Both the position numbers and the translations under genes were made by a program. Below are positions 14,975 through 36,881 of a DNA stretch of 36,881 nucleotides, piece after piece. The notes beneath the pieces were generated by a model. That model was not told the origin of the DNA. It did no database searches and saw only the letters and a list, made by a program, of their open reading frames with translations. Origin of the DNA: a virus; the IMG/VR virus record IMGVR_UViG_3300021247_000575, positions 1-36,881 of that record; one strand, written 5' to 3'. How positions within the stretch are numbered: position 1 is the stretch's first letter; the number at the start of each line of letters is the position of its first letter.

Positions 14975-15507
14975 GGCGCTTTCTCGCACTGGATCAATCG
15001 CTCTCATCTTGTGGCTTTGCGCTATGGGATGAGGGCGATCCCCTCCCGCGCTCCGGCGCGTGGCCGCTTTGCGAGGGGATCAAAACCCGCGCGCTCGCCT
15101 TCATCGGATTGCATCGCCAGATCGGCGCAATCCACAAGGAGCGGAGCCTCTACCTCATCGCGCACGAAACCCCTCTCAAGCTCCCGGTTGATAAGATTGA
15201 TAAATTGATCGGGCTCTATGGCCTTGTTGCTCACATTGAGAGCATTGCCCAAATCAAGAGCGTGGCCGTGAAAAGCGTTGATGCCAGCCATTGGCGCGAA
15301 ACATTCCTTGGACCGGCCAAGGAGCGCAAAGGCAAAACTCCATTCCAGCTCAAGCGGATGGCCATTGAGCGGTGCCGCCAATATGGAATGGATCCCGCAA
15401 CCCATGATGAGGCGGAGGCAATCGGGATCCTTGATCACCTCCTCCATGATCACCGGATCACGCCACCTTGGCGGATCGCCCATCCATTCTTGGAAACCTT
15501 GGAATAA
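14971..15507 (+). CDS. RuvC-like Holliday junction resolvase
   Basis: 178 residues from a TTG that overlaps the preceding stop (TTGA). The RNase H-fold metal ligands are visible: Asp8 in F-L-A-L-D-Q-S, Glu66 in A-H-E-T-P, and Asp146/Glu149 in T-H-D-E-A-E-A-I-G-I-L. S-L-S-S-C-G-F-A after the first Asp is the usual beta-turn. Phage RuvC-like enzymes cut branched DNA before packaging or during recombination. It works naturally with the ERF/RecE-like pair on the other early operon. Confidence 0.78.
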   Translation: MRRFLALDQSLSSCGFALWDEGDPLPRSGAWPLCEGIKTRALAFIGLHRQIGAIHKERSLYLIAHETPLKLPVDKIDKLIGLYGLVAHIESIAQIKSVAVKSVDASHWRETFLGPAKERKGKTPFQLKRMAIERCRQYGMDPATHDEAEAIGILDHLLHDHRITPPWRIAHPFLETLE

Positions 15508-15529
15508 CCACAAAGGGAGCTGAAAACCC

Positions 15530-15781
15530 ATGAGCTTATATGATTTTGAGGCGGATCTTGATCCCTCAACCCGTTGGCCTCGCGTGAGGTTCAACTTTGC
15601 AAACGGATGGACGGGATCGCTCCTTGTTAAATCCCTCCGCACGGAGGCGATAGATGCGAGCGTTTGCGCTTGGCCAACTGGCCAGAGCGGCACCGGCAAG
15701 AGCGAGCTTGGCCCGAATGAGGCGAGCGCGGATGAGGCCATTGTGTGGCTTTATGAGATCTCAAAGAGAGCCCGGCCGTGA
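15530..15781 (+). CDS. Unknown small protein, 83 residues
   Basis: Start at ATG 15530, directly after AAAGGGAGCTGAAAACCC, the clearest copy of the recurrent ribosome-binding motif. The protein reads M-S-L-Y-D-F-E-A-D-L-D-P, R-V-R-F-N-F-A-N-G-W-T-G-S-L and a helical E-A-S-A-D-E-A-I-V-W-L-Y-E-I C-terminus. A G-T-G-K-S stretch is not a Walker A motif in context. It overlaps the RNase H-like gene by four bases. Function unknown. Confidence 0.58.
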   Translation: MSLYDFEADLDPSTRWPRVRFNFANGWTGSLLVKSLRTEAIDASVCAWPTGQSGTGKSELGPNEASADEAIVWLYEISKRARP

Positions 15782-17783: not shown

Positions 17784-18369
17784 GATGATCCAGCCTCTCG
17801 CGCTCTTTGCTGACAACCCGCCTCCGGCCCTACCGGCCGCAACGGAGGATGAGATCCGCGAGGTTGTGGCATTTCTCGCGGGATCGCTCAAGGCACCTCG
17901 CACCGGCCTTGAGGCTGGCAAGATCAAACTTGGAGCCTATCGCCTCGCCCTCGCCGGGCAGAGCAAGGCCGCCATCCAGCACGCGGCAACCGTTTGCGTC
18001 AAAACCATGGAGTGGCTTCCGGCTCCCTATGAGGTGCTCACTATCGCCAAGGCTTATCTCGCGCCAACGGCGCTCGCTCACGCCAAGGCCAATCGCCTCA
18101 TCCGTGATCGGAGGCAACGCGAGTTTGAGGAAACGCTCCGCAAGATCCATCTCCGGAAGCTCTCTCAAGATGAGCTGGATGCCCTCTCCGATTACATCAA
18201 GCGAGTGGCAGAGACGCAAGGAAACCTCATCCTCCTCCTTTCCGGCCAATACGTTTACCGCAATCCGGAAACCATCGCACTCAACCTCAAAGAGAGGGGG
18301 GATGCTCTCAAAGAGCTCCAGAATGAGCGGAGCAAACTCGCGCGCGAGGAGGAAAACGGAGATGGATAA
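17695..18369 (+). CDS. Unknown replication-region protein, 224 residues
   Basis: ATG 17695 with GAGCTGAAAGGGAAC upstream, overlapping the DUF1376 gene by 89 bases. It is almost entirely helical: a Pro/Ala-rich start, T-E-D-E-I-R-E-V-V-A-F-L-A-G-S-L-K, E-W-L-P-A-P-Y-E-V-L, a basic R-L-I-R-D-R-R-Q-R-E-F helix, and a coiled-coil-like C-terminus. Its place after the initiator is where a helicase loader or second replication protein sits in lambdoid phages, but no P-loop is present. Function not assigned. Confidence 0.6.
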   Translation: METALALTPETASLMPLLKAWRDETEIPDEMIQPLALFADNPPPALPAATEDEIREVVAFLAGSLKAPRTGLEAGKIKLGAYRLALAGQSKAAIQHAATVCVKTMEWLPAPYEVLTIAKAYLAPTALAHAKANRLIRDRRQREFEETLRKIHLRKLSQDELDALSDYIKRVAETQGNLILLLSGQYVYRNPETIALNLKERGDALKELQNERSKLAREEENGDG

Positions 18370-18643
18370 GAGCAAGCGTTGCGCTCAATGCCAGCATTTC
18401 AGGGCGCGGGATCATCGGTGCAAGTTGCTCCGGATCACCGCGCTCCCTTTCGGTTCTTGCGACAGGTGGCGGCCTCGCGTGATGGCCTATCCGGTTTGCG
18501 GATCTTGTGGCCAGCCTCGCGGATCAAATGAGGCTTGCCGCGAGTGCCGCCTCCGGCTCAAGATAGCCTTAGACTTGGTGCGCTTGGCCAAGTTGTGGCG
18601 CACGTTCAAGCAAGCACTCAAGGAGCTGAAACCATGGAATTGA
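18362..18643 (+). CDS. Cysteine-rich zinc-binding protein
   Basis: 93 residues from ATG 18362, overlapping the previous stop. Two cysteine clusters are visible: C-A-Q-C-Q-H-F...H-R-C with a later C (residues ~7-33), and C-G-S-C-G-Q-P-R...A-C-R-E-C (~46-60), then a basic helix. This reads as two zinc-binding knuckles and a nucleic-acid-binding tail. A gene too small for firm family assignment; operon overlap and intact cysteine pairs support it. Confidence 0.6.
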   Translation: MDKSKRCAQCQHFRARDHRCKLLRITALPFGSCDRWRPRVMAYPVCGSCGQPRGSNEACRECRLRLKIALDLVRLAKLWRTFKQALKELKPWN

Positions 18644-19221: not shown

Positions 19222-19551
19222 ATGGCCAAGGAAGCAACTCAAGCGGCTGGAGCTGATCTCACCGCTATTCTCGCAAGGCTGGATGCCCTAGAGGCTGACC
19301 GCAAAGCTGATTTTGATCGTGCCATGAAGGATGGCGAGATCATCGCGGATCTCAAGGCTCACGTTGAGGCTCTGGCCAAAACGGTTGATGGCCACACCGA
19401 AATCCTCGCCAATGAAACCGCGCGCCTCATGGATGGCGAGCTCGCGGCCGGTGAGCTTGTTGAGGGCTATGATCCGCGCGGTGAGGTGCTCAAGCTCCAT
19501 CATCAAGTGGAGGCGATGGCCAATCACCTCAATTTCCGTTTGCCGGGATAA
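19222..19551 (+). CDS. Coiled-coil protein, 109 residues
   Basis: I start at ATG 19222 behind AAGGAG (19211-19216); an upstream in-frame start lacks such a site. The sequence is a long heptad-like helix (L-T-A-I-L-A-R-L-D-A-L-E-A-D-R-K-A-D-F-D, then I-I-A-D-L-K-A-H-V-E-A-L-A-K) and a short C-terminal helix. It is likely a dimeric coiled coil. No family recognised. It is followed by an 11-bp inverted repeat. Confidence 0.58.
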   Translation: MAKEATQAAGADLTAILARLDALEADRKADFDRAMKDGEIIADLKAHVEALAKTVDGHTEILANETARLMDGELAAGELVEGYDPRGEVLKLHHQVEAMANHLNFRLPG

Positions 19552-19573
19552 TTCCCCCAATGTCTCGGCAATA

Positions 19574-19622
19574 GGCCGGTTGGCCTCGCGTGCGCCCAAT
19601 CAATCGCAAAAGCCAACCGGCC
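19574..19622 (+). other. 11-bp perfect inverted repeat in an intergenic gap
   Basis: GGCCGGTTGGC (19574-19584) and GCCAACCGGCC (19612-19622) pair exactly around a 27-base spacer. No T-run follows. It lies between the coiled-coil gene and a gene with the shared ribosome-binding motif. It may be a protein-binding site or RNA stem. Confidence 0.5.
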
Positions 19623-19648
19623 ACCTCAATTCAAGGGAGCTGAAACCC

Positions 19649-19981
19649 ATGGAAATCACCGTAAAATTCTATCCCGATGAGGGACCGGCAAGGCCAGCCT
19701 CATCCGATCCGTTGCCGGATCTCCGCTTTCCCCTCTTTGATCGCTTGGTGCGCGCGGCTGGAGAAGCGCGGAAGCGGGTTGGCCGCGCCAAGCGGTGGCA
19801 GGTTTCGGAGGCTGGATGGGCTCACATTGTTCATCAAAACGGCCTCACAAATCGCAACGCGATCACATACTCCACCGCTCCAAAGGAGCCTTATGCCGCG
19901 CTCCTTGGCTATCCGATCCGGCTTGATCGGAGCCTCCCGCGCGGAGTGATCGCCATCCTTGATTGCGGAGATCGGCCATGA
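19649..19981 (+). CDS. Unknown protein, 110 residues
   Basis: ATG 19649 follows CAAGGGAGCTGAAACCC, a full copy of the extended ribosome-binding motif. The sequence starts M-E-I-T-V-K-F-Y-P-D-E-G, has a basic helix (F-D-R-L-V-R-A-A-G-E-A-R-K-R-V-G-R-A-K-R-W) and ends in a beta-rich region with G-Y-P-I-R-L-D-R-S-L-P. Basic and compact, possibly nucleic-acid binding. It overlaps the next start by four bases. Confidence 0.58.
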   Translation: MEITVKFYPDEGPARPASSDPLPDLRFPLFDRLVRAAGEARKRVGRAKRWQVSEAGWAHIVHQNGLTNRNAITYSTAPKEPYAALLGYPIRLDRSLPRGVIAILDCGDRP

Positions 19982-28804: not shown

Positions 28805-28838
28805 GGGCCGGAGGGGAAACTCTCCGGCCCTTTTCTTT
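28805..28838 (+). terminator. Intrinsic terminator after the decoration-like gene
   Basis: GGGCCGGAG (28805-28813) pairs with CTCCGGCCC (28822-28830), loop GGGAAACT, then TTTTCTTT (28831-28838). A strong element between abundant head genes and the following minor genes. Confidence 0.85.
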
Positions 28839-28884
28839 GGCGCTTCGCGGCGGTATGAGGCGGAAACCAAGGAGGCCGGATCCC

Positions 28885-29292
28885 ATGACAGTCCAATTCT
28901 CAACCACCGTTCGCAATGCCGTTTTGGATGCCGTTGAAACGGCCATTGGCGCGAGCGCCATCCTCAAGATTTTCACCGGCGCGAAACCGGCCGATTGCGG
29001 CACCGCCAACTCCGGCACCGTGCTTGCAACCCTCAACCTCCCTTCCGATTACATGAGCGCGGCCTCTGGAGGCAGTAAATCCAAAACCGGCACTTGGGAG
29101 GATTTGAGCTGCGATAATGCTGGCACGGCTGGCCACTATCGGATCTTTGCCAGCGATGGCACAACCTGCCATGAGCAAGGCTCCATCACGGCCACCGGCG
29201 GCGGCGGAGATATGGAGCTGGATAACACCGTGCTCGCGGCTGGCCAGCAATTCACCGTGACAAACAAGACGCTCACCGCAAGCGGAGCCTAA
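28885..29292 (+). CDS. Minor structural protein, 135 residues
   Basis: ATG 28885 follows AAGGAGG. The sequence T-V-R-N-A-V-L-D-A-V-E-T-A-I-G, L-K-I-F-T-G-A-K-P, L-A-T-L-N-L-P, G-T-A-G-H-Y-R-I-F-A-S-D-G-T-T, and M-E-L-D-N-T-V-L-A-A-G-Q-Q-F-T-V-T is a widespread beta-rich phage protein pattern found near connector genes. Assembly place is uncertain. It forms a unit with the next two genes, with only four bases to the next. Confidence 0.6.
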   Translation: MTVQFSTTVRNAVLDAVETAIGASAILKIFTGAKPADCGTANSGTVLATLNLPSDYMSAASGGSKSKTGTWEDLSCDNAGTAGHYRIFASDGTTCHEQGSITATGGGGDMELDNTVLAAGQQFTVTNKTLTASGA

Positions 29293-29296
29293 GCTC

Positions 29297-30124
29297 ATGC
29301 CGATCACCGATGAAAGCACGCTCCTTGCGGCGCTTCGCGCGGCTCCAGCCAATCGGACGTTCAACAAGGCTTCTCAAACGGCGGAGGGCGCTGGCACTTG
29401 GCATTCGCTCTGGAAAGCGGCCGGTTATCCGGCGGCCGGTGCCTCGCCTCCAGCCTTCTCCGCCGGATCCGGCTATACTCCGGACAAGAGCACAACCGGC
29501 GCTTTCCCCTTCACCAATGCGGCATCAAATGGCGATGCGGCGCTCCTCAAGTTCGGTGCCGTTGGCGCAACCGTTGGCCAACTGATCATCTATGATCGGC
29601 TTTGGCATTGCTCCGGCTTTGGCACGGTGATCACCACGGCGCAAAATGTCACCACTCCCGGCAACCTCCCGGCCGGGCGCGATCCAAACTCCGGCCTTGA
29701 TGTTGAGGTTTGGGGTGAGGTTTACACCGCGCCGGGCGCGAGCACCGCAACTTGGACGCTCACCGGCACGGATGGCCTTGGCAATGCCTCCAAGAATTGG
29801 ACTTATACTCATCCGGCGAATGCGGAGAGCGTTGGCCAGATGTTTCCATTTATGCCCGGCGGCGGCGCTCCGGCCACCGTCAACACCATGAGGCAGCTCA
29901 CCTCCTTTATCGCCTCCGCCACCTCTGGCACGGCCGGGGATATTGGGATCACGCTCCTCCGCCGCTTGGCCTCCATCCCGCTCAACACCGCTAATGTTGG
30001 CGCGATCCTTGATGCTTTGGCCACCGGGCTCCCAACGGTTTACAATGATGCTTGCCTTGCCTTCATGGTGCAATGCTCAACCACCAACACCGGCTTCATG
30101 CTTGGTGAGCTTGCGGTTGGATGA
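29297..30124 (+). CDS. Putative virion surface protein, 275 residues
   Basis: A beta-rich protein with N-terminal helix (E-S-T-L-L-A-A-L-R-A-A-P-A-N-R-T-F), W-H-S-L-W-K-A-A-G-Y-P near 35, and a C-terminal sequence rich in N, T, G and A typical of virion surface domains. The middle (Y-D-R-L-W-H-C-S-G-F-G, V-E-V-W-G-E-V-Y-T-A-P-G) looks like a jelly-roll segment. The role, head or tail-neck decoration, is inferred from neighbours. Three bases separate its stop from the repeat-protein start. Confidence 0.5.
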   Translation: MPITDESTLLAALRAAPANRTFNKASQTAEGAGTWHSLWKAAGYPAAGASPPAFSAGSGYTPDKSTTGAFPFTNAASNGDAALLKFGAVGATVGQLIIYDRLWHCSGFGTVITTAQNVTTPGNLPAGRDPNSGLDVEVWGEVYTAPGASTATWTLTGTDGLGNASKNWTYTHPANAESVGQMFPFMPGGGAPATVNTMRQLTSFIASATSGTAGDIGITLLRRLASIPLNTANVGAILDALATGLPTVYNDACLAFMVQCSTTNTGFMLGELAVG

Positions 30125-30127
30125 TGG

Positions 30128-31306
30128 ATGGCTTGGAAACGGTGGCGCAATGATGGCGGGGCGAGCGGTGGCGGCCTCGCCTCTCGCTTTCGTGGTGGGA
30201 TCTATCGCTTTGGCGTAACTGCCAACACCGTTATCCGCGCGGAGGTTTTTTTCACCAAGGCGCGCGGCACCGCAACCGGCACTGTCACGATCACAGGATC
30301 CGGCGGAGCGGTTGCTCCGATCAAGGCCAGCTCAAGCGGATCCTTGAGCATCTCCTCATCATCGGCGGCCGTTTCTCCTCTCTATGCCACCGCAAGCGGC
30401 ACGATCACGCTCTCAAGCTCCGCAACCGGATCGGCACCGGGCGCTCCAGTTTCAGCAACGGCCACCGGCGCGATCTCTATCTCCAGCTCATCGGCCGGAT
30501 CGCTCTTGGCCAAGGGATCGGCGGCGGCCACGATCACCCTCTCCGGATCCGGAGTTGCCAAGGCGCGGATCTTGGCTACAGGCACCGCAAGCCTCACGAT
30601 CACCGGCACGGCCGGAGCGGCCCTCCGCGCCAAGGCAACCGGATCCGCAACCATCACCTTGAGCTCATCGGCTGGAGCTTCATCGCGGATCCTTGCCTCT
30701 GCCTCTGGAGTTGTGACGCTGGCCAGCTCCGCGCAAGCGGCCTCGCGCATTCTGGCCACGGCCACAGCAAGCCTCATTGTGATTTCATCGGCGGCGGCGG
30801 CTATTCCGATCAAGGCAAATGGCACCGCCTCAATTTCTATCTCCAGTTTGGGCAGCGCAGCGGCTCCAGCGCGAGCAGCGGCCTCTGGAGGCATCTCCAT
30901 AGCCTCAACCTCTCAAGGCGTTCTCTTGGCCTCTGGAGCGGCTCTGGCGACGATCTCGATTTCCTCAATCGCCTCCGGAGTTGTTGGATCGGGCATCTCC
31001 GCCACCGCAACCGGCACCATTGAGATCTCCTCCAGCTCCGCCGCGCTTGCCTTGATCCGTGGCTCTGGATCCGGATCCATCACCATCACCGGCGTTGGCG
31101 ATGCTCAAGCTCTGGCCAGCGCGGCCGCGCTGGTCAACATCACGATCACAAGCGGCGCGGTTGGTGAGGCGTTCTGGATTGCGGCCTCTGGATCTCGCAC
31201 GGCCGCGAGCATCGGAGCGCGATCCTTTCCAACGTGGCGCTCTGGCACTATAGCGGGCGGCACCATCACCGGGCGGCACGTTGCCAGCAAGAGAGGCGCA
31301 CAATGA
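30128..31306 (+). CDS. Repeat-rich beta protein, 15 copies of a 20-residue unit
   Basis: 392 residues. After a basic N-terminus (W-K-R-W-R-N-D-G-G-A-S-G-G-G) come 15 degenerate repeats from ~45 to ~350. Each has the form A-T-G-S-A-T-I-T-L-S-S-S-A, with the beta core at residues 52, 72, 92, 115, 135, 155, 175, 195, 215, 235, 255, 275, 297, 317 and 337: exactly 20-residue spacing except two units with 2-3 inserted residues. The composition is Ala/Ser/Gly/Thr/Ile with almost no charge, as expected for a beta-solenoid or fibre. It lies between minor head genes and the connector, so a virion fibre is probable. Its stop overlaps the connector start. Confidence 0.65.
   Translation: MAWKRWRNDGGASGGGLASRFRGGIYRFGVTANTVIRAEVFFTKARGTATGTVTITGSGGAVAPIKASSSGSLSISSSSAAVSPLYATASGTITLSSSATGSAPGAPVSATATGAISISSSSAGSLLAKGSAAATITLSGSGVAKARILATGTASLTITGTAGAALRAKATGSATITLSSSAGASSRILASASGVVTLASSAQAASRILATATASLIVISSAAAAIPIKANGTASISISSLGSAAAPARAAASGGISIASTSQGVLLASGAALATISISSIASGVVGSGISATATGTIEISSSSAALALIRGSGSGSITITGVGDAQALASAAALVNITITSGAVGEAFWIAASGSRTAASIGARSFPTWRSGTIAGGTITGRHVASKRGAQ
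30260..31177 (+). repeat. Degenerate ~60-bp tandem coding repeats
   Basis: The DNA encodes 15 protein repeats with a period of about 60 bases, but the copies have diverged at nucleotide level and few stretches are identical, so the array is old or selected at protein level rather than recently expanded. The recurring words ATCACC, CTCATCGGC and GCAACGGC mark the units. Confidence 0.6.
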
Positions 31307-32178
31307 TCAACTTTCTCCGGCGCTATGCAGAGGATGAAACCTCTTTTGCATGGGCTCCTCCGCTTTCGGATGGAGACACAATCACCAACTCCACCGCAAC
31401 GCTCTTGAGCGGATCCACAACCGTAAATCTCGCGGATGCCTTCACCGATCTTGAGGCGAGTTTCAGGATCTCCGGTGGCGCGGCCGGTGAGGATGTTTTC
31501 ATTGGATGGACGGTGGAAACCGCCAATGGCGACACCTTCACGGAAACCGCTTTCGTGGCGATCCGCTCAAGCGCGGATTTTGACGCGGTGACACCGGCGG
31601 AGCTCCGGCGCGAGCTCCGCGATGTTGAGGATGCGGATGAGGTGCTTGCCGAATTGATCGCGGCGGCCCGGCGCTATGTGGAGGAGGCCACCGGCGTTGA
31701 TCTTATCCCTCACACTCGCACGCTCTCCATTGATCAATGGGCTTGCGGCGGTGATGGCCTTGGTTGGTGGGATGGCGTGCGCGAGGGAGCGATCACGGCC
31801 GGAGCGCCTCGCGCCATTGATCTCATCGGTTGGCCAGTCAATGAGCTCACCAAAGTTGAGATCTATTCCGCCGATGGCACGCCTAGCGTGGTTCCTTCCG
31901 GCACGTTCTACCTCGCCAACGGCCGCAAGCCCGCGCGAGTGGCCTTAGTGCAGGGCGCAACGTGGCCGATCCTCTACAGGCCAGCCGATGCCGCGCTCAT
32001 CACCTATTCAACCGGCTACGCCAACCCGGCGGCGGTGGATCCTGCCCTCAAGCGTGCGGTGATCCAGATCGCGGCTCATTGGTATGAAAACCGCGAGCTC
32101 ATGAGCACTGACAGTCCGGACAAGGTGCCGATGCAAGCCGGGCGGATCCTCCGCCAATTTGGCACGGTGAGGCTATGA
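31303..32178 (+). CDS. Head-tail connector (gp6/phiE125 gp8-like) with N-terminal beta domain
   Basis: 291 residues from ATG 31303, overlapping the repeat protein stop. Residues ~10-85 form an extra beta-sandwich-like domain (W-A-P-P-L-S-D-G-D-T-I-T, F-R-I-S-G-G-A-A-G-E-D-V-F-I-G-W). The rest is the connector fold: V-T-P-A-E-L-R-R-E-L-R-D, L-A-E-L-I-A-A-A-R-R-Y-V-E-E-A-T-G, then T-R-T-L-S-I-D-Q-W, and the P-A-L-K-R-A-V-I-Q-I-A-A-H-W-Y-E-N-R-E helix. It joins the portal to the neck. The fusion of the beta domain is the odd point. Confidence 0.78.
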   Translation: MINFLRRYAEDETSFAWAPPLSDGDTITNSTATLLSGSTTVNLADAFTDLEASFRISGGAAGEDVFIGWTVETANGDTFTETAFVAIRSSADFDAVTPAELRRELRDVEDADEVLAELIAAARRYVEEATGVDLIPHTRTLSIDQWACGGDGLGWWDGVREGAITAGAPRAIDLIGWPVNELTKVEIYSADGTPSVVPSGTFYLANGRKPARVALVQGATWPILYRPADAALITYSTGYANPAAVDPALKRAVIQIAAHWYENRELMSTDSPDKVPMQAGRILRQFGTVRL

Positions 32179-34179: not shown

Positions 34180-34206
34180 CGTTCAACCGGATTTCAGCTA
34201 AGGGAG

Positions 34207-34237
34207 AAGGGCGGCAATTAGGCCGCCCTTTTCTTTT
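34207..34237 (+). terminator. Intrinsic terminator between tail tube and chaperone genes
   Basis: AAGGGCGGC (34207-34215) pairs with GCCGCCCTT (34222-34230) around AATTAG, then TTCTTTT. It lies 12 bases before the chaperone start. It should reduce transcription of chaperones and tape measure relative to the tube protein. Confidence 0.88.
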
Positions 34238-34249
34238 GGAGTTGAAGCA

Positions 34250-34570
34250 ATGGCAAATCGCGCTCGCGGTGAGGTTGAAATCACAGTTCCCAAGGTTGGC
34301 AAGGTGCTCCTCTGCCTCACCATGGCCGGGATGGCCGCCCTTGAGGATGCCTTTGAGGTGGAGAGCCTCCAAGATGCAATCGCCAAGATCGGCGCAACCC
34401 CATCATCCAAAAACCTCGCCACCGTGCTCCATGCCCTCACGCTTGGCAGCGATAACGGCAAGGAGTTTACCGTTGAGGAGATCCGCCGGTGGGCGATTAG
34501 CCCGGCCGTGATCAAGGATGCAATGGCCGCAATGAATGCCTCTAATTCGGAAGGCGAGGGAAACGAATAA
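34250..34570 (+). CDS. Tail assembly chaperone (G-like, GTA gp10-type)
   Basis: 106 residues from ATG 34250, with TTGGAGTTGAAGCA upstream. R-A-R-G-E-V-E-I-T, L-L-C-L-T-M-A-G-M-A-A-L-E-D-A-F, L-A-T-V-L-H-A-L-T-L-G and S-P-A-V-I-K-D-A-M-A-A-M-N match GTA-gp10-like tail chaperones. It ends in E-G-E-G-N-E and a stop four bases after a GGGAAAC slippery site. It coats the tape measure before tube assembly. A minor frameshifted form is expected. Confidence 0.8.
   Translation: MANRARGEVEITVPKVGKVLLCLTMAGMAALEDAFEVESLQDAIAKIGATPSSKNLATVLHALTLGSDNGKEFTVEEIRRWAISPAVIKDAMAAMNASNSEGEGNE
34558..34564 (+). promoter_or_regulatory. Canonical -1 ribosomal frameshift site GGGAAAC
   Basis: G-GGA-AAC (34558-34564) is in the correct frame: the zero-frame codons GGA and AAC can re-pair at GGG and AAA. 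The zero-frame stop follows within four bases, and the -1 frame is open from 34546 to 34821. A 5-bp stem CCGGC/GCCGG (34592-34596 with 34602-34606) lies downstream. Lambda uses the related GGGAAAG for gpG/gpGT. Confidence 0.78.
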
Positions 34571-34821
34571 AGCCCGGCGCGCGCGGCACCTCCGGCGCGG
34601 AGCCGGATCTCAAAACCCCTTGGCGGCGCTGGATGGAGCTTGGCCTTGGTCACTTGAGGTTGGCTCCGGCCGTTTTTTGGCGGTATAGCGTCAAAGAATG
34701 GATGGCGGCCGTTGATGGCTACATGGAGAGCATCGGAGCGGAGCAAGCTCAAGAGCCCTTCACTAGAGATCAATTGGCCGATTTGATGGAGGAATTTCCC
34801 GATGATCGGCACTCTACTTGA
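34564..34821 (+). CDS. T-like extension of the tail chaperone, read by -1 frameshift
   Basis: After slippage the frame reads R-I-K-P-G-A-R-G-T-S-G-A-E-P-D-L, then W-R-R-W-M-E-L-G-L-G-H-L-R-L-A-P-A-V-F-W-R-Y-S-V-K-E-W, matching the small L-G-L-x-P-x-x-F-W-x-x-T/S-x-x-E-W domain of the second chaperone. The fusion would be ~190 residues. ATG 34633 is an alternative start without a good ribosome binding site, so frameshifting is the better reading. The tape measure gene starts inside its end. Confidence 0.75.
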   Translation, partial: RIKPGARGTSGAEPDLKTPWRRWMELGLGHLRLAPAVFWRYSVKEWMAAVDGYMESIGAEQAQEPFTRDQLADLMEEFPDDRHST

Positions 34822-36881
34822 GAGGCTCTTTGTTGCCGTTGGCGTGGATCTATCGGGATTTGGTGATGAGCTTGCCAAGGCCAACAGTGACGTTGGCAAG
34901 CTCACCGCCGATCTCTCCAAGAAGTTTGATGATGTGGGCAAGAGCTGGCAGGAAACCGGCAAAAAGATGATGAAGAATGGCGCGATCATGAGCGCCACGA
35001 TCACCGCTCCACTCCTCCTCTTTGCCAAGACAAGCGCCACGGCCGCGACAGAGAGCGCGCAAGCCATGGCGCAAGTCAACGCGGCCCTCAAGTCAATGGG
35101 GCCGGTGGCCGGTTACACCGGAGAGCAACTCTCCCAAATGGCCGGGCATCTCCAAGATGTTTCCACCTTTGATGATGATGATATTCTCAAAAAGGTAACG
35201 GCCAACCTCCTCACCTTTGGCAACGTGCAAGGCGATGTTTTTGCGCGCGCGCAGCAATCGGCGGTGGATCTCTCCGCACGCCTTGGCCAAGATCTCCAGA
35301 GCTCCACCATCCAGCTTGGCAAGGCGCTCAACGATCCCGTTAAAGGCGTTACCGCGCTCCAGCGCGTTGGCGTGAGCTTCACCGCTCAACAGAAAGATCA
35401 AATCAAGGCCATGGTTGAGGCTGGCAATTCGGCCGGAGCCCAAAAACTCATCCTTGGTGAGCTGGAAAAACAGTTTGGCGGCGCGGCTAAGGCAATGCGC
35501 GATGCCTCTCCGGATGCGGCGATGCAACAGGCTTGGCGCACCTTCCAAGAGACGGTTGGCGCTATCGTGGTGAGCGTGCTCCCTCCGCTCACCTCCATGC
35601 TCACCGATGTTCTCAATGGCTTCAACGCTCTTGATCCGGGGATGCAAAAGATCGCTCTTGGCGCGGTGGCATTCGTGGCGGCCATCGGCCCTATCTCCGT
35701 GGCTATCGGCGCGGTTGTCACCGGCTTTGGCTTTCTCATCCCGATCATCGGCGCGGCGATCCCGATCATTGCCAGCATTGTTACGGCCGTAGCCGGGCTG
35801 GCAATCGCCTTTTGGCCGGTAACTTTGGCCGTGGCGGCCGTGGCGGCGGCTTGGTATTATTGGGATGATATTGTTGCCATTGTCGGCAAGGTTGGCGCGG
35901 CGGTTTCGGATTGGTATTCCAAGAACGTCAAGCCAACCATGGATGCCGTGATGGCGGTGCTCCGGCCTTTCGTGGCATTCTTCAAGGATTATTTCGGAGC
36001 CACGATCACCGGCGCAATCAACGTGATCTCCGCGCTCCTCAAGGGAGATTTCTCCGGCGCTTGGAAGGCGGCCAAGGAGATGGCTTTCGCGCAACTCCAA
36101 GCTCTGGCCAACCTCTTTGGCGCAATCGTGCCTAAGATAATCGGCTTCGTTTCATCGCTCTATTCCGGCATCAAAACTTGGCTCCAAGACAAACTCACGG
36201 CCGTTTTTGATTGGCTCAAGGGCAAGCTGGAGGCGGTTGGAAAGTGGTTTTTTGATCTCTATGATGCGGTTGTTGGCCACTCCTATATTCCCGATATGGT
36301 GAATGAGATTGGAGAGAACATGAAGCGCCTTGATGCGCTCATGGTTACTCCAGCCAAGAAGGCCACCGATGCCACGAAAAAGGCATTCCGGCAGCTTGCG
36401 GAGGATGCGGCCTCAATCCTCAAGGAGCTCTTTCCTCTGGATGCGGCGCTCCTTGAGATCACCAAAAAGATGGAGACGCTCGCCAAGGCGCGGGCGGCTG
36501 GAGCCATCTCGCAAGGCACCTATGATAAGGCCATGGGCGAGCTCAATGGCCAAAAGGCTGGCATCGGCTTTGATAAGGCCATGGAGAAAAATCCGGATAA
36601 TCCGCTTGGCGTGCCAATCCTGAAAACCGGCGAAACCATCGCGCCTATGATTGAGTTTGTTGGCGAGATCGTGAAGCTCCCTCCAGCATTGAGCGAGGCG
36701 CAAACGGCACTCAAGAATTTTGGCGAGCAACTTGGTGATCGGATCATGGGAGGGCTCCGCGATGTGCTCACCGGCCGGGCAAGCCTCAAGGACGTTCTCA
36801 AGAATATGTTTGCGGATTTCTTGGAGCGGATGATCACCGGCGCTCTCCGTAGTCTGGAAAAGTCCATCTTTGGCGAGGGCG
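34802..36881 (+). CDS. Tape measure protein, N-terminal part (continues at base 1)
   Basis: ATG 34802 lies inside the chaperone end, with GGAGG at 34789-34793. The 693 residues seen start with a helical domain (L-A-K-A-N-S-D-V-G-K-L-T-A-D-L). A conserved block follows (A-L-K-S-M-G-P-V-A-G-Y-T...L-L-T-F-G-N-V...D-L-S-A-R-L-G-Q-D-L-Q). Two long hydrophobic segments (~280-330) come next, then an extended coiled region. No stop occurs before the right edge, and the frame resumes at base 1. Full length is about 802 residues, which by the 1.5 angstrom per residue rule would give a tail near 120 nm. Confidence 0.92.
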   Translation, partial: MIGTLLERLFVAVGVDLSGFGDELAKANSDVGKLTADLSKKFDDVGKSWQETGKKMMKNGAIMSATITAPLLLFAKTSATAATESAQAMAQVNAALKSMGPVAGYTGEQLSQMAGHLQDVSTFDDDDILKKVTANLLTFGNVQGDVFARAQQSAVDLSARLGQDLQSSTIQLGKALNDPVKGVTALQRVGVSFTAQQKDQIKAMVEAGNSAGAQKLILGELEKQFGGAAKAMRDASPDAAMQQAWRTFQETVGAIVVSVLPPLTSMLTDVLNGFNALDPGMQKIALGAVAFVAAIGPISVAIGAVVTGFGFLIPIIGAAIPIIASIVTAVAGLAIAFWPVTLAVAAVAAAWYYWDDIVAIVGKVGAAVSDWYSKNVKPTMDAVMAVLRPFVAFFKDYFGATITGAINVISALLKGDFSGAWKAAKEMAFAQLQALANLFGAIVPKIIGFVSSLYSGIKTWLQDKLTAVFDWLKGKLEAVGKWFFDLYDAVVGHSYIPDMVNEIGENMKRLDALMVTPAKKATDATKKAFRQLAEDAASILKELFPLDAALLEITKKMETLAKARAAGAISQGTYDKAMGELNGQKAGIGFDKAMEKNPDNPLGVPILKTGETIAPMIEFVGEIVKLPPALSEAQTALKNFGEQLGDRIMGGLRDVLTGRASLKDVLKNMFADFLERMITGALRSLEKSIFGEG

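What the first reader, a model, noticed from the sequence alone, without database searches (positions are those of the whole stretch)
30128..31306. Virion-region protein built of fifteen 20-residue beta repeats
The repeat period is exactly 20 residues over most of ~300 residues, with I/L/V-T-I/L-S cores and almost no charge. It sits between head-accessory genes and the connector. I do not recognise the family. A solenoid or trimeric head fibre would be a new structural module for this phage type.
Basis: partly seen in the sequence, partly recalled or inferred. Interest (0 to 1): 0.62.

Follow-up and report, generated by a model that had tools for sequence, protein, structure and literature searches.

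The report
Phage fibre protein of 20-residue repeats
This phage gene encodes a long repetitive beta protein that is probably the fast-changing rod of an extra fibre at the neck of the virus; related cassettes with the same repeat length but very different sequences turn up in many phages.

Summary
ORF 30128-31306 (392 aa) carries about 15 repeats of 20 residues (autocorrelation z = 10.7 at lag 20). AlphaFold2 draws two short strands per repeat, a beta-solenoid (pLDDT 62, pTM 0.58, moderate). The protein is not an orphan: its upstream neighbour (29297-30124) belongs to a large jelly-roll-like family. In 69 independent loci the gene directly downstream of that family is periodic in 39 of 59 testable cases, with period 20-24 in 37; control genes in the same loci are periodic in 16 of 393. 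Many of the repeat proteins share a short N-terminal motif (RGG..W....L..DFF) and then diverge almost completely. Next to them lie fibre parts. The gene before (28837-29292) is a homologue of a solved 141-aa chain in the tail-fibre structure of phage 7-7-1. The connector after it (31303-32178) carries a Gp77 'fiber-tail adaptor' domain at its N-terminus. Nine related connectors lack that domain, and no homologue of the fibre genes was detected in their loci. Best reading: a plug-in fibre module anchored at the head-tail connector, with this protein as its hypervariable solenoid. Location in the virion, oligomeric state and target are inferred. Closest precedents: GP4 gp77/gp80, LSH1 gp34-36, 7-7-1 garland plus long fibre.

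The parts
28837..29292 (+). Small beta protein P0009 (phrog_3758); homologue of a 141-aa chain in the tail-fibre structure of Agrobacterium phage 7-7-1, probably its dimeric garland protein. Real start may be the ATG at 28885.
   Evidence: phrog_3758 E=6e-31; family profile hits 9rkv_A E=1.3e-9 and 44nx_B E=1.5e-12; homologues directly upstream of the P0007 family in 10 other clusters.
29297..30124 (+). P0007, conserved partner; predicted single-domain beta-sandwich of jelly-roll type.
   Evidence: AlphaFold2 pLDDT 88.7, pTM 0.88; about 100 relatives in IMG/VR and three MAG contigs; only weak fold matches, Z <= 4.9.
30128..31306 (+). P0001, the finding: repeat protein, 392 aa.
30128..30256 (+). 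N-terminal anchor region of P0001 (residues 1-43) with the motif FRGGIYRFGVTANTVIRAEVFF.
   Evidence: Similar RGG..W....L..DFF motif at the N-terminus of many downstream repeat proteins.
30257..31165 (+). Repeat domain of P0001 (residues 44-346), ~15 x 20 residues, two predicted strands per repeat.
31166..31303 (+). C-terminal tail of P0001 (residues 347-392), degenerate repeats and basic end; mostly low confidence.
   Evidence: pLDDT under 50 from residue 363.
31303..32178 (+). P0008, head-tail connector with an extra N-terminal domain.
   Evidence: PHROG head-tail adaptor E=9.5e-21, Pfam Phage_connect_1.
31339..31557 (+). Gp77 domain (fibre-tail adaptor of podophage GP4) in P0008, residues 13-85.
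   Evidence: PF23148 E=1.9e-9, above the curated cut-off; not detected in 9 related connectors.

Best explanation
P0001 is the variable structural rod of an accessory fibre. The block P0009-P0007-P0001-Gp77 domain is one module. The Gp77 domain on the connector forms the docking collar at the neck; P0009 is the small fibril or linker subunit; P0007 is a conserved jelly-roll unit; P0001 is held by its short conserved N-terminal motif and extends as a beta-solenoid of about 15 turns of 20 residues. Shown: the repeats, the conserved linkage, the shared N-terminal motif, the homology of P0009 and of the Gp77 domain to fibre proteins, the presence of the block here and its absence at the same place in related phages, and fast evolution of the repeat gene in a related cassette. 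Inferred: presence in the virion, attachment at the neck, which protein P0001 binds, its copy number or trimer state, and its role (reach and surface adhesion, with sequence and repeat number changing under host or environment pressure).
For: Period 20. Solenoid model: regular short strands, two per 20 residues, pLDDT 62, pTM 0.58; VIA-align Z 15-17 over 217-372 residues to beta-helix folds, among them phage tailspikes and phi29 gp12. Linkage: 39 of 59 downstream genes periodic, 37 with period 20-24, against 16 of 393 control genes. Shared N-terminal motif. The gene before the P0007 family is a fibre-type protein in many loci: Gp80/GP4 fiber I (PF23140 E=7e-43; PDB 8jou E=1.9e-9) or the P0009 family (7-7-1 tail-fibre chain). 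Gp77 domain in the window connector, and in 17 other loci, mostly overlapping or touching the end of the repeat gene; Gp77 is the commonest Pfam family just downstream of the cassette (3 of 92 genes scanned). Nine related connectors have no detectable Gp77 domain, and no P0009 or P0007 homologue was detected in their loci. Cultured Pseudanabaena phage Pan4: P0009 homologue, a different 309-aa protein, a 630-aa protein with 20-residue repeats alignable to P0001 (z = 13.3 over shuffles), then a 98-aa protein. In six related phages the repeat gene has mean dN 0.18 against 0.015 for P0007; without the most divergent one, dN about 0.08 at dS about 0.19.
Against: No virion proteomics for this phage. 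AlphaFold2 is known to invent beta-helices for repetitive sequence (noted in PMC13243795), and no Foldseek hit to P0001 was significant (E >= 0.17). Some proteins in the same slot have repeats that can hardly form a solenoid (SPSASVSPSSS in L025) or only 13-residue W-rich repeats (Rhodobacter phages), so the slot may tolerate flexible or unlike rods. In many loci the cassette is not beside a connector. The identity of 9rkv_A as the garland protein is by elimination from chain length and copy number.
Confidence: 0.66

Rival explanations
1. Capsid (head) fibre or decoration: P0007 and P0001 sit on the shell.
For: Genes lie between capsid and connector genes; P0007 has weak fold similarity to Pam1 and KHP40 capsid cement proteins (Z about 4.3); PHROG labels the P0009 and Gp80 families 'head and packaging'; phage 7-7-1 has protein head fibres whose genes are unknown (PMC12796354).
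Against: P0009 family matches a tail-fibre structure chain; Gp77 is fused to the connector, not to a shell protein; related cassettes lie beside tail genes in Rhodobacter phage RcZahn, and the Pan4 one follows a metallopeptidase gene downstream of tail genes.
Confidence: 0.17
2. Flexible low-complexity linker or tether: the repeats have no regular fold and only space apart two ends.
For: A/S/G/T-rich; extreme divergence of the repeats; SPSASVSP variants; dN/dS about 0.4 in the repeat gene of a related cassette; moderate pLDDT.
Against: Strict 20-24-residue period kept across sequences that hardly align, with I/L at fixed phases; dN/dS is still below 1.
Confidence: 0.12
3. Trimeric beta fibre (for example a triple beta-spiral or stacked hairpins) rather than a single-chain solenoid. 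This concerns the fold only and is compatible with the fibre module as such.
For: Two strands per repeat with regular turns is also compatible with trimeric shafts; many phage fibres are trimers (general knowledge).
Against: The single-chain model already resembles beta-helix folds over most of its length; no oligomer could be modelled here.
Confidence: 0.2

Closest known systems
Ralstonia podophage GP4 tail-fibre system (gp77 adaptor, gp80 fiber I; PDB 8JOU)
   Same: Gp77 domain present in the window connector (PF23148) and next to many cassettes; Gp80 homologues occupy the slot before the P0007 family in other loci.
   Different: In the window the gp80 slot is filled by the P0009 family, with no detectable profile similarity to Gp80; the GP4 genome was not available, so homologues of P0007 and P0001 there could not be checked; here the adaptor domain is fused to a siphophage-type connector.
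Alishewanella phage LSH1 module gp34-36 (PMC13243795)
   Same: Small co-occurring gene set detected in virions by mass spectrometry; one member matches the 8JOU fibril protein, one has an Ig-type fold, one has a poorly predicted beta-helix region suspected by its authors to be repetitive.
   Different: LSH1 gp34 carries an enzyme-like beta-helix domain; no LSH1 sequence was compared here, so homology was not tested; gene content and order differ.
Agrobacterium phage 7-7-1 garland (gp014) and long tail fibre (gp015) (PMC12796354; PDB 9RKV)
   Same: P0009 family is homologous to a 141-aa chain of 9RKV. The long fibre has a beta-helical middle and a jelly-roll end, the two folds predicted for P0001 (Z 10.1 to chain O 168-433) and P0007 (Z 4.5 to chain N 474-580).
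   Different: In 7-7-1 the beta-helix and jelly roll are one protein on a myophage baseplate; fold matches are weak for P0007.
Anabaena myophage A-1(L) neck fibre gp80-gp82 (PMC10966104)
   Same: Three-gene accessory fibre anchored on a neck ring.
   Different: Bead-chain of trimers, no 20-residue repeats mentioned in the passages read; no sequence link tested.

Membership tests
GP4-type accessory fibre module | Gp77-type fibre-tail adaptor domain | tested here: met
   PF23148 E=1.9e-9, 38.4 bits against cut-off 27, in P0008 residues 13-85.
GP4-type accessory fibre module | Gp80-type fibril protein | tested here: inconclusive
   Window slot holds the P0009 family, no Pfam hit, no profile similarity to Gp80, but homologous to another tail-fibre chain, 9rkv_A.
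GP4-type accessory fibre module | Physical assembly into a fibre on the virion | not testable with these tools
   No virion of this phage.
Single-chain beta-solenoid / beta-helix proteins | Repeats of about 18-25 residues, two or three strands per turn, stacked | tested here: inconclusive
   Period 20 met; model has two strands per repeat, Z up to 17 to beta-helices but pLDDT 62 and no significant Foldseek hit.
Phage tailspike depolymerases (beta-helix enzymes) | Catalytic site or recognisable enzyme domain | tested here: inconclusive
   No Pfam or PDB sequence hit and only five D/E residues, which makes an acid-catalysed glycosidase unlikely, not excluded.
Triple beta-spiral fibre shafts | Trimer of intertwined chains | not testable with these tools
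   Only single-chain prediction is offered.
Capsid decoration / head fibre | Binding to the capsid shell | not testable with these tools
   Only weak fold similarity of P0007 to cement proteins.

The most novel reading that the evidence does not exclude
A widespread, undescribed class of phage appendage: a plug-in cassette in which a conserved anchor and jelly-roll unit carry an interchangeable, fast-evolving beta-solenoid whose period (20-24 residues) is fixed by structure while its sequence and repeat number are free to change, giving phages a tunable adhesive whisker at neck or tail.
Probability: 0.42. Interest if true: 0.72.

Novelty: new variant of a known kind. Interest (0 to 1): 0.57.

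Why it matters
Fibres set phage host range, and accessory fibres are poorly annotated because repetitive proteins defeat sequence search: of the dozen or so proteins of this kind scanned here, none reached a Pfam cut-off through its repeats (two did so only through a separate glycine-rich domain). Tying the repeats to a recognisable partner gene, a short N-terminal motif and a Gp77 docking domain gives a practical way to find and name them, and may explain the unexplained, possibly repetitive region reported in a recent structural study (LSH1 gp34).

Tried and rejected
Direct homology of P0001: no hit in Pfam, PHROGs, PDB or cultured phages by tblastn. The one IMG/VR hit (L001) lies in a predicted 546-aa protein of another make-up and was treated as a compositional match; not pursued. 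The period-20 match to Pan4 was missed by tblastn and recovered only by genome position and an unfiltered alignment. Foldseek on P0001 gave nothing significant in PDB or BFVD. A sequence link between P0009 and Gp80 profiles: not found (hhalign probability 0.5%), so they are not claimed to be one family; Gp80 and phrog_644 profiles do match (80%). Ralstonia phage GP4 was not found under the accession I tried. The P0007 family HMM found no match among the phiM5, C72C1 or CRP-4 neighbours of Gp80 homologues, so the jelly-roll partner is not universal. Charlie gp22 and phiM5 gp18 do not align with the P0001 repeats above shuffled sequence.

Full report
Observation. The ORF 30128-31306 encodes 392 residues. 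Residues 46-350 repeat every 20 residues: autocorrelation z is 10.7 at lag 20, 7.2 at 40 and 6.1 at 60, and no shuffle came near. The units are almost gap-free: starts at 44, 64, 84, 107 and then every 20, with one 3-residue and one ~2-residue insertion. Each unit reads roughly [RP]-[IL]-x-A-[ST]-A-[ST]-G-[TS]-[IL]-[ST]-[IL]-[ST]-S-S-A-x-x-A-x. Acidic residues are nearly absent, basic ones are not.

No family by sequence. Pfam, PHROGs, PDB and tblastn against 50,697 phage records gave nothing. The surroundings are those of an HK97-type siphophage: terminase, portal, protease and capsid upstream, then head-tail adaptor, head closure, tail completion and tail tube downstream, and a J-like tail fibre at the start of the window.

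The partner gene. The gene just upstream, P0007 (29297-30124), is the key. It has relatives in Rhodobacter and Microcystis phages, about 100 in IMG/VR and three in MAG contigs. I took the gene directly downstream of each relative and measured its periodicity. In 69 clusters (80% identity of the P0007 relative), 59 had a downstream ORF of 100 aa or more; 39 were periodic at z >= 4.5, and 37 of these had a period of 20 to 24 (19 of them exactly 20). Of 393 other ORFs in the same loci 16 were periodic, 6 with a period of 20 to 24. The true rate is probably higher: at least five of the non-periodic cases look like second copies of P0007. The repeats themselves differ greatly between phages: TITLSSS in the window, LAGTSAITASGKR in L044, TPLSVNYxLN in L061, TFYTQSLRRTLRPTN in L026. 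What many share is the N-terminus: RGG[SA][DA]xWDxxxAGxxLxxDFFG in the commonest form and a looser version in the window, RGGIYRFGVTANTVIRAEVFF (read by eye, not tested statistically). So a short anchor is conserved and the repeat domain is replaced or diverges.

Evolution. In six related phages (L010 to L018 group) the repeat gene changes far faster than its neighbours: mean protein identity 77% against 97% (P0007), 95% (Gp80-like gene) and 91% (Gp77-like gene). For the five closest, dN is about 0.08 at dS about 0.19, so dN/dS is about 0.4 against about 0.05 for P0007; the sixth has a repeat protein 31 residues shorter. This is fast but still constrained evolution. It was measured in a related cassette, not in the window phage, for which no equally close set of relatives was found.

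Fold. With seven rows AlphaFold2 gives a regular chain of short strands, two per 20 residues, pLDDT 62 and pTM 0.58. VIA-align scores Z 15 to 17 against beta-helix proteins such as the Sf6 tailspike, phi29 gp12 and Vag8, above the 13 that the tool gives as a guide for repeats; Foldseek itself is not significant. Because AlphaFold is known to hallucinate beta-helices on repetitive sequence (PMC13243795), I hold the solenoid at moderate confidence. P0007 is predicted well (pLDDT 88.7) as a beta-sandwich of jelly-roll type with only weak matches, none above Z 4.9.

What the neighbours say. (1) The gene before P0007 is often a 120-150-residue beta protein of one of three families: phrog_240, which is Pfam Gp80, 'Podophage GP4 fiber I' (PDB 8jou); phrog_644; or phrog_3758, the window's P0009. 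The P0009 profile matches two solved chains: 44nx_B (1.5e-12) and 9rkv_A (1.3e-9). 9RKV is the tail-fibre model of phage 7-7-1; its 141-residue, four-copy chain is by size and number the dimeric garland protein that contacts the fibres (my inference by elimination). (2) The gene after the repeat protein is in some loci a small adaptor. A profile of P0008 residues 1-95 finds 17 other loci, twelve of them with a start within about 75 bp of the end of the repeat gene, ten of these at the same ATGA-type overlap; eight of the ten belong to one group of close relatives. Pfam calls this domain Gp77, the GP4 fibre-tail adaptor. (3) In the window this domain is fused to the head-tail connector. Nine relatives of that connector (209-248 aa) show no Gp77 domain, and no P0009 or P0007 homologue was detected in their loci; where enough upstream sequence is held the order is capsid, one small gene, connector. 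So the block from 28837 to about 31557 looks like one insertion of a complete fibre module with its own dock. (4) The cultured cyanophage Pan4 has a P0009 homologue (58% identity), a 309-aa protein not detectably related to P0007, a 630-aa repeat protein and a 98-aa protein. Its repeats (TASGTLDLTGSATGAVRVAG) align with those of P0001 at z = 13.3 over shuffled sequence. LUZ24-like C72C1 also has a period-20 protein right after its Gp80 homologue.

Mechanism. I conclude that P0001 is most likely the solenoid rod of an accessory fibre docked at the connector by the Gp77 domain, together with P0009 and P0007. The N-terminal motif most likely binds one of these three. Shown: linkage, homology of the dock and of P0009, presence of the block here and absence at the same place in relatives, period and divergence. 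Inferred: virion location, binding partner, trimer or monomer, adhesive role. The pattern (fixed period, free sequence and length, fast change) fits a rod or adhesin that meets a variable surface; it does not identify the receptor.

Known or new. The closest described systems are GP4 gp77/gp80, the LSH1 gp34-36 module, the 7-7-1 garland with its long fibre, and the A-1(L) neck fibre. The window shares real homologues with the first and third. The link between the P0007 family and the hypervariable repeat proteins, and their N-terminal motif, I did not find described in the papers I read, but I read only a few and the GP4 fibre paper (J Mol Biol 2023) did not turn up in the library. I therefore file it as a new variant of a known kind.

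Noticed in passing
L002:6767-7015, L003:5761-6006, L054:1058-1297, L092:6830-7051: In Rhodobacter phages and some IMG/VR contigs the slot after the P0007 relative holds a short protein, in L054 and L092 with the same N-terminal motif, and 11-13-residue W-rich repeats (KVWTGSAWV), which look like small binding units.
   Followed up: partly
L041:6112-9441 and L025:6682-9111: Extreme variants in the same slot: a 1109-aa protein ending in Cys-rich repeats (CQTxCQ) and an 809-aa protein with 16-residue SPSASVSPSSS repeats.
   Followed up: no
L024, L043, L070, L071, L078: Apparent tandem second copies of the P0007 family directly downstream of the first.
   Followed up: no
L027:4073-5539 and L027:6669-7586: Two genes on one contig share a nearly identical stretch of repeats although their N-termini differ, suggesting recent duplication or conversion between repeat genes.
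   Followed up: no
L110:2408-3625 (Mycobacterium phage Charlie gp22): Annotated minor tail protein with a 21/42-residue periodicity (z about 5), two genes before a P0009 homologue.
   Followed up: partly
window 34198-35091 (-), 35093-36100 (-), 15022-15741 (-), 17807-18643 (+), 19331-19981 (+): Long ORFs with no PHROG match at E <= 0.01.
   Followed up: no
L020:4932-5659: The P0007 relative in this contig is split between reading frames (broken gene or sequencing error).
   Followed up: no
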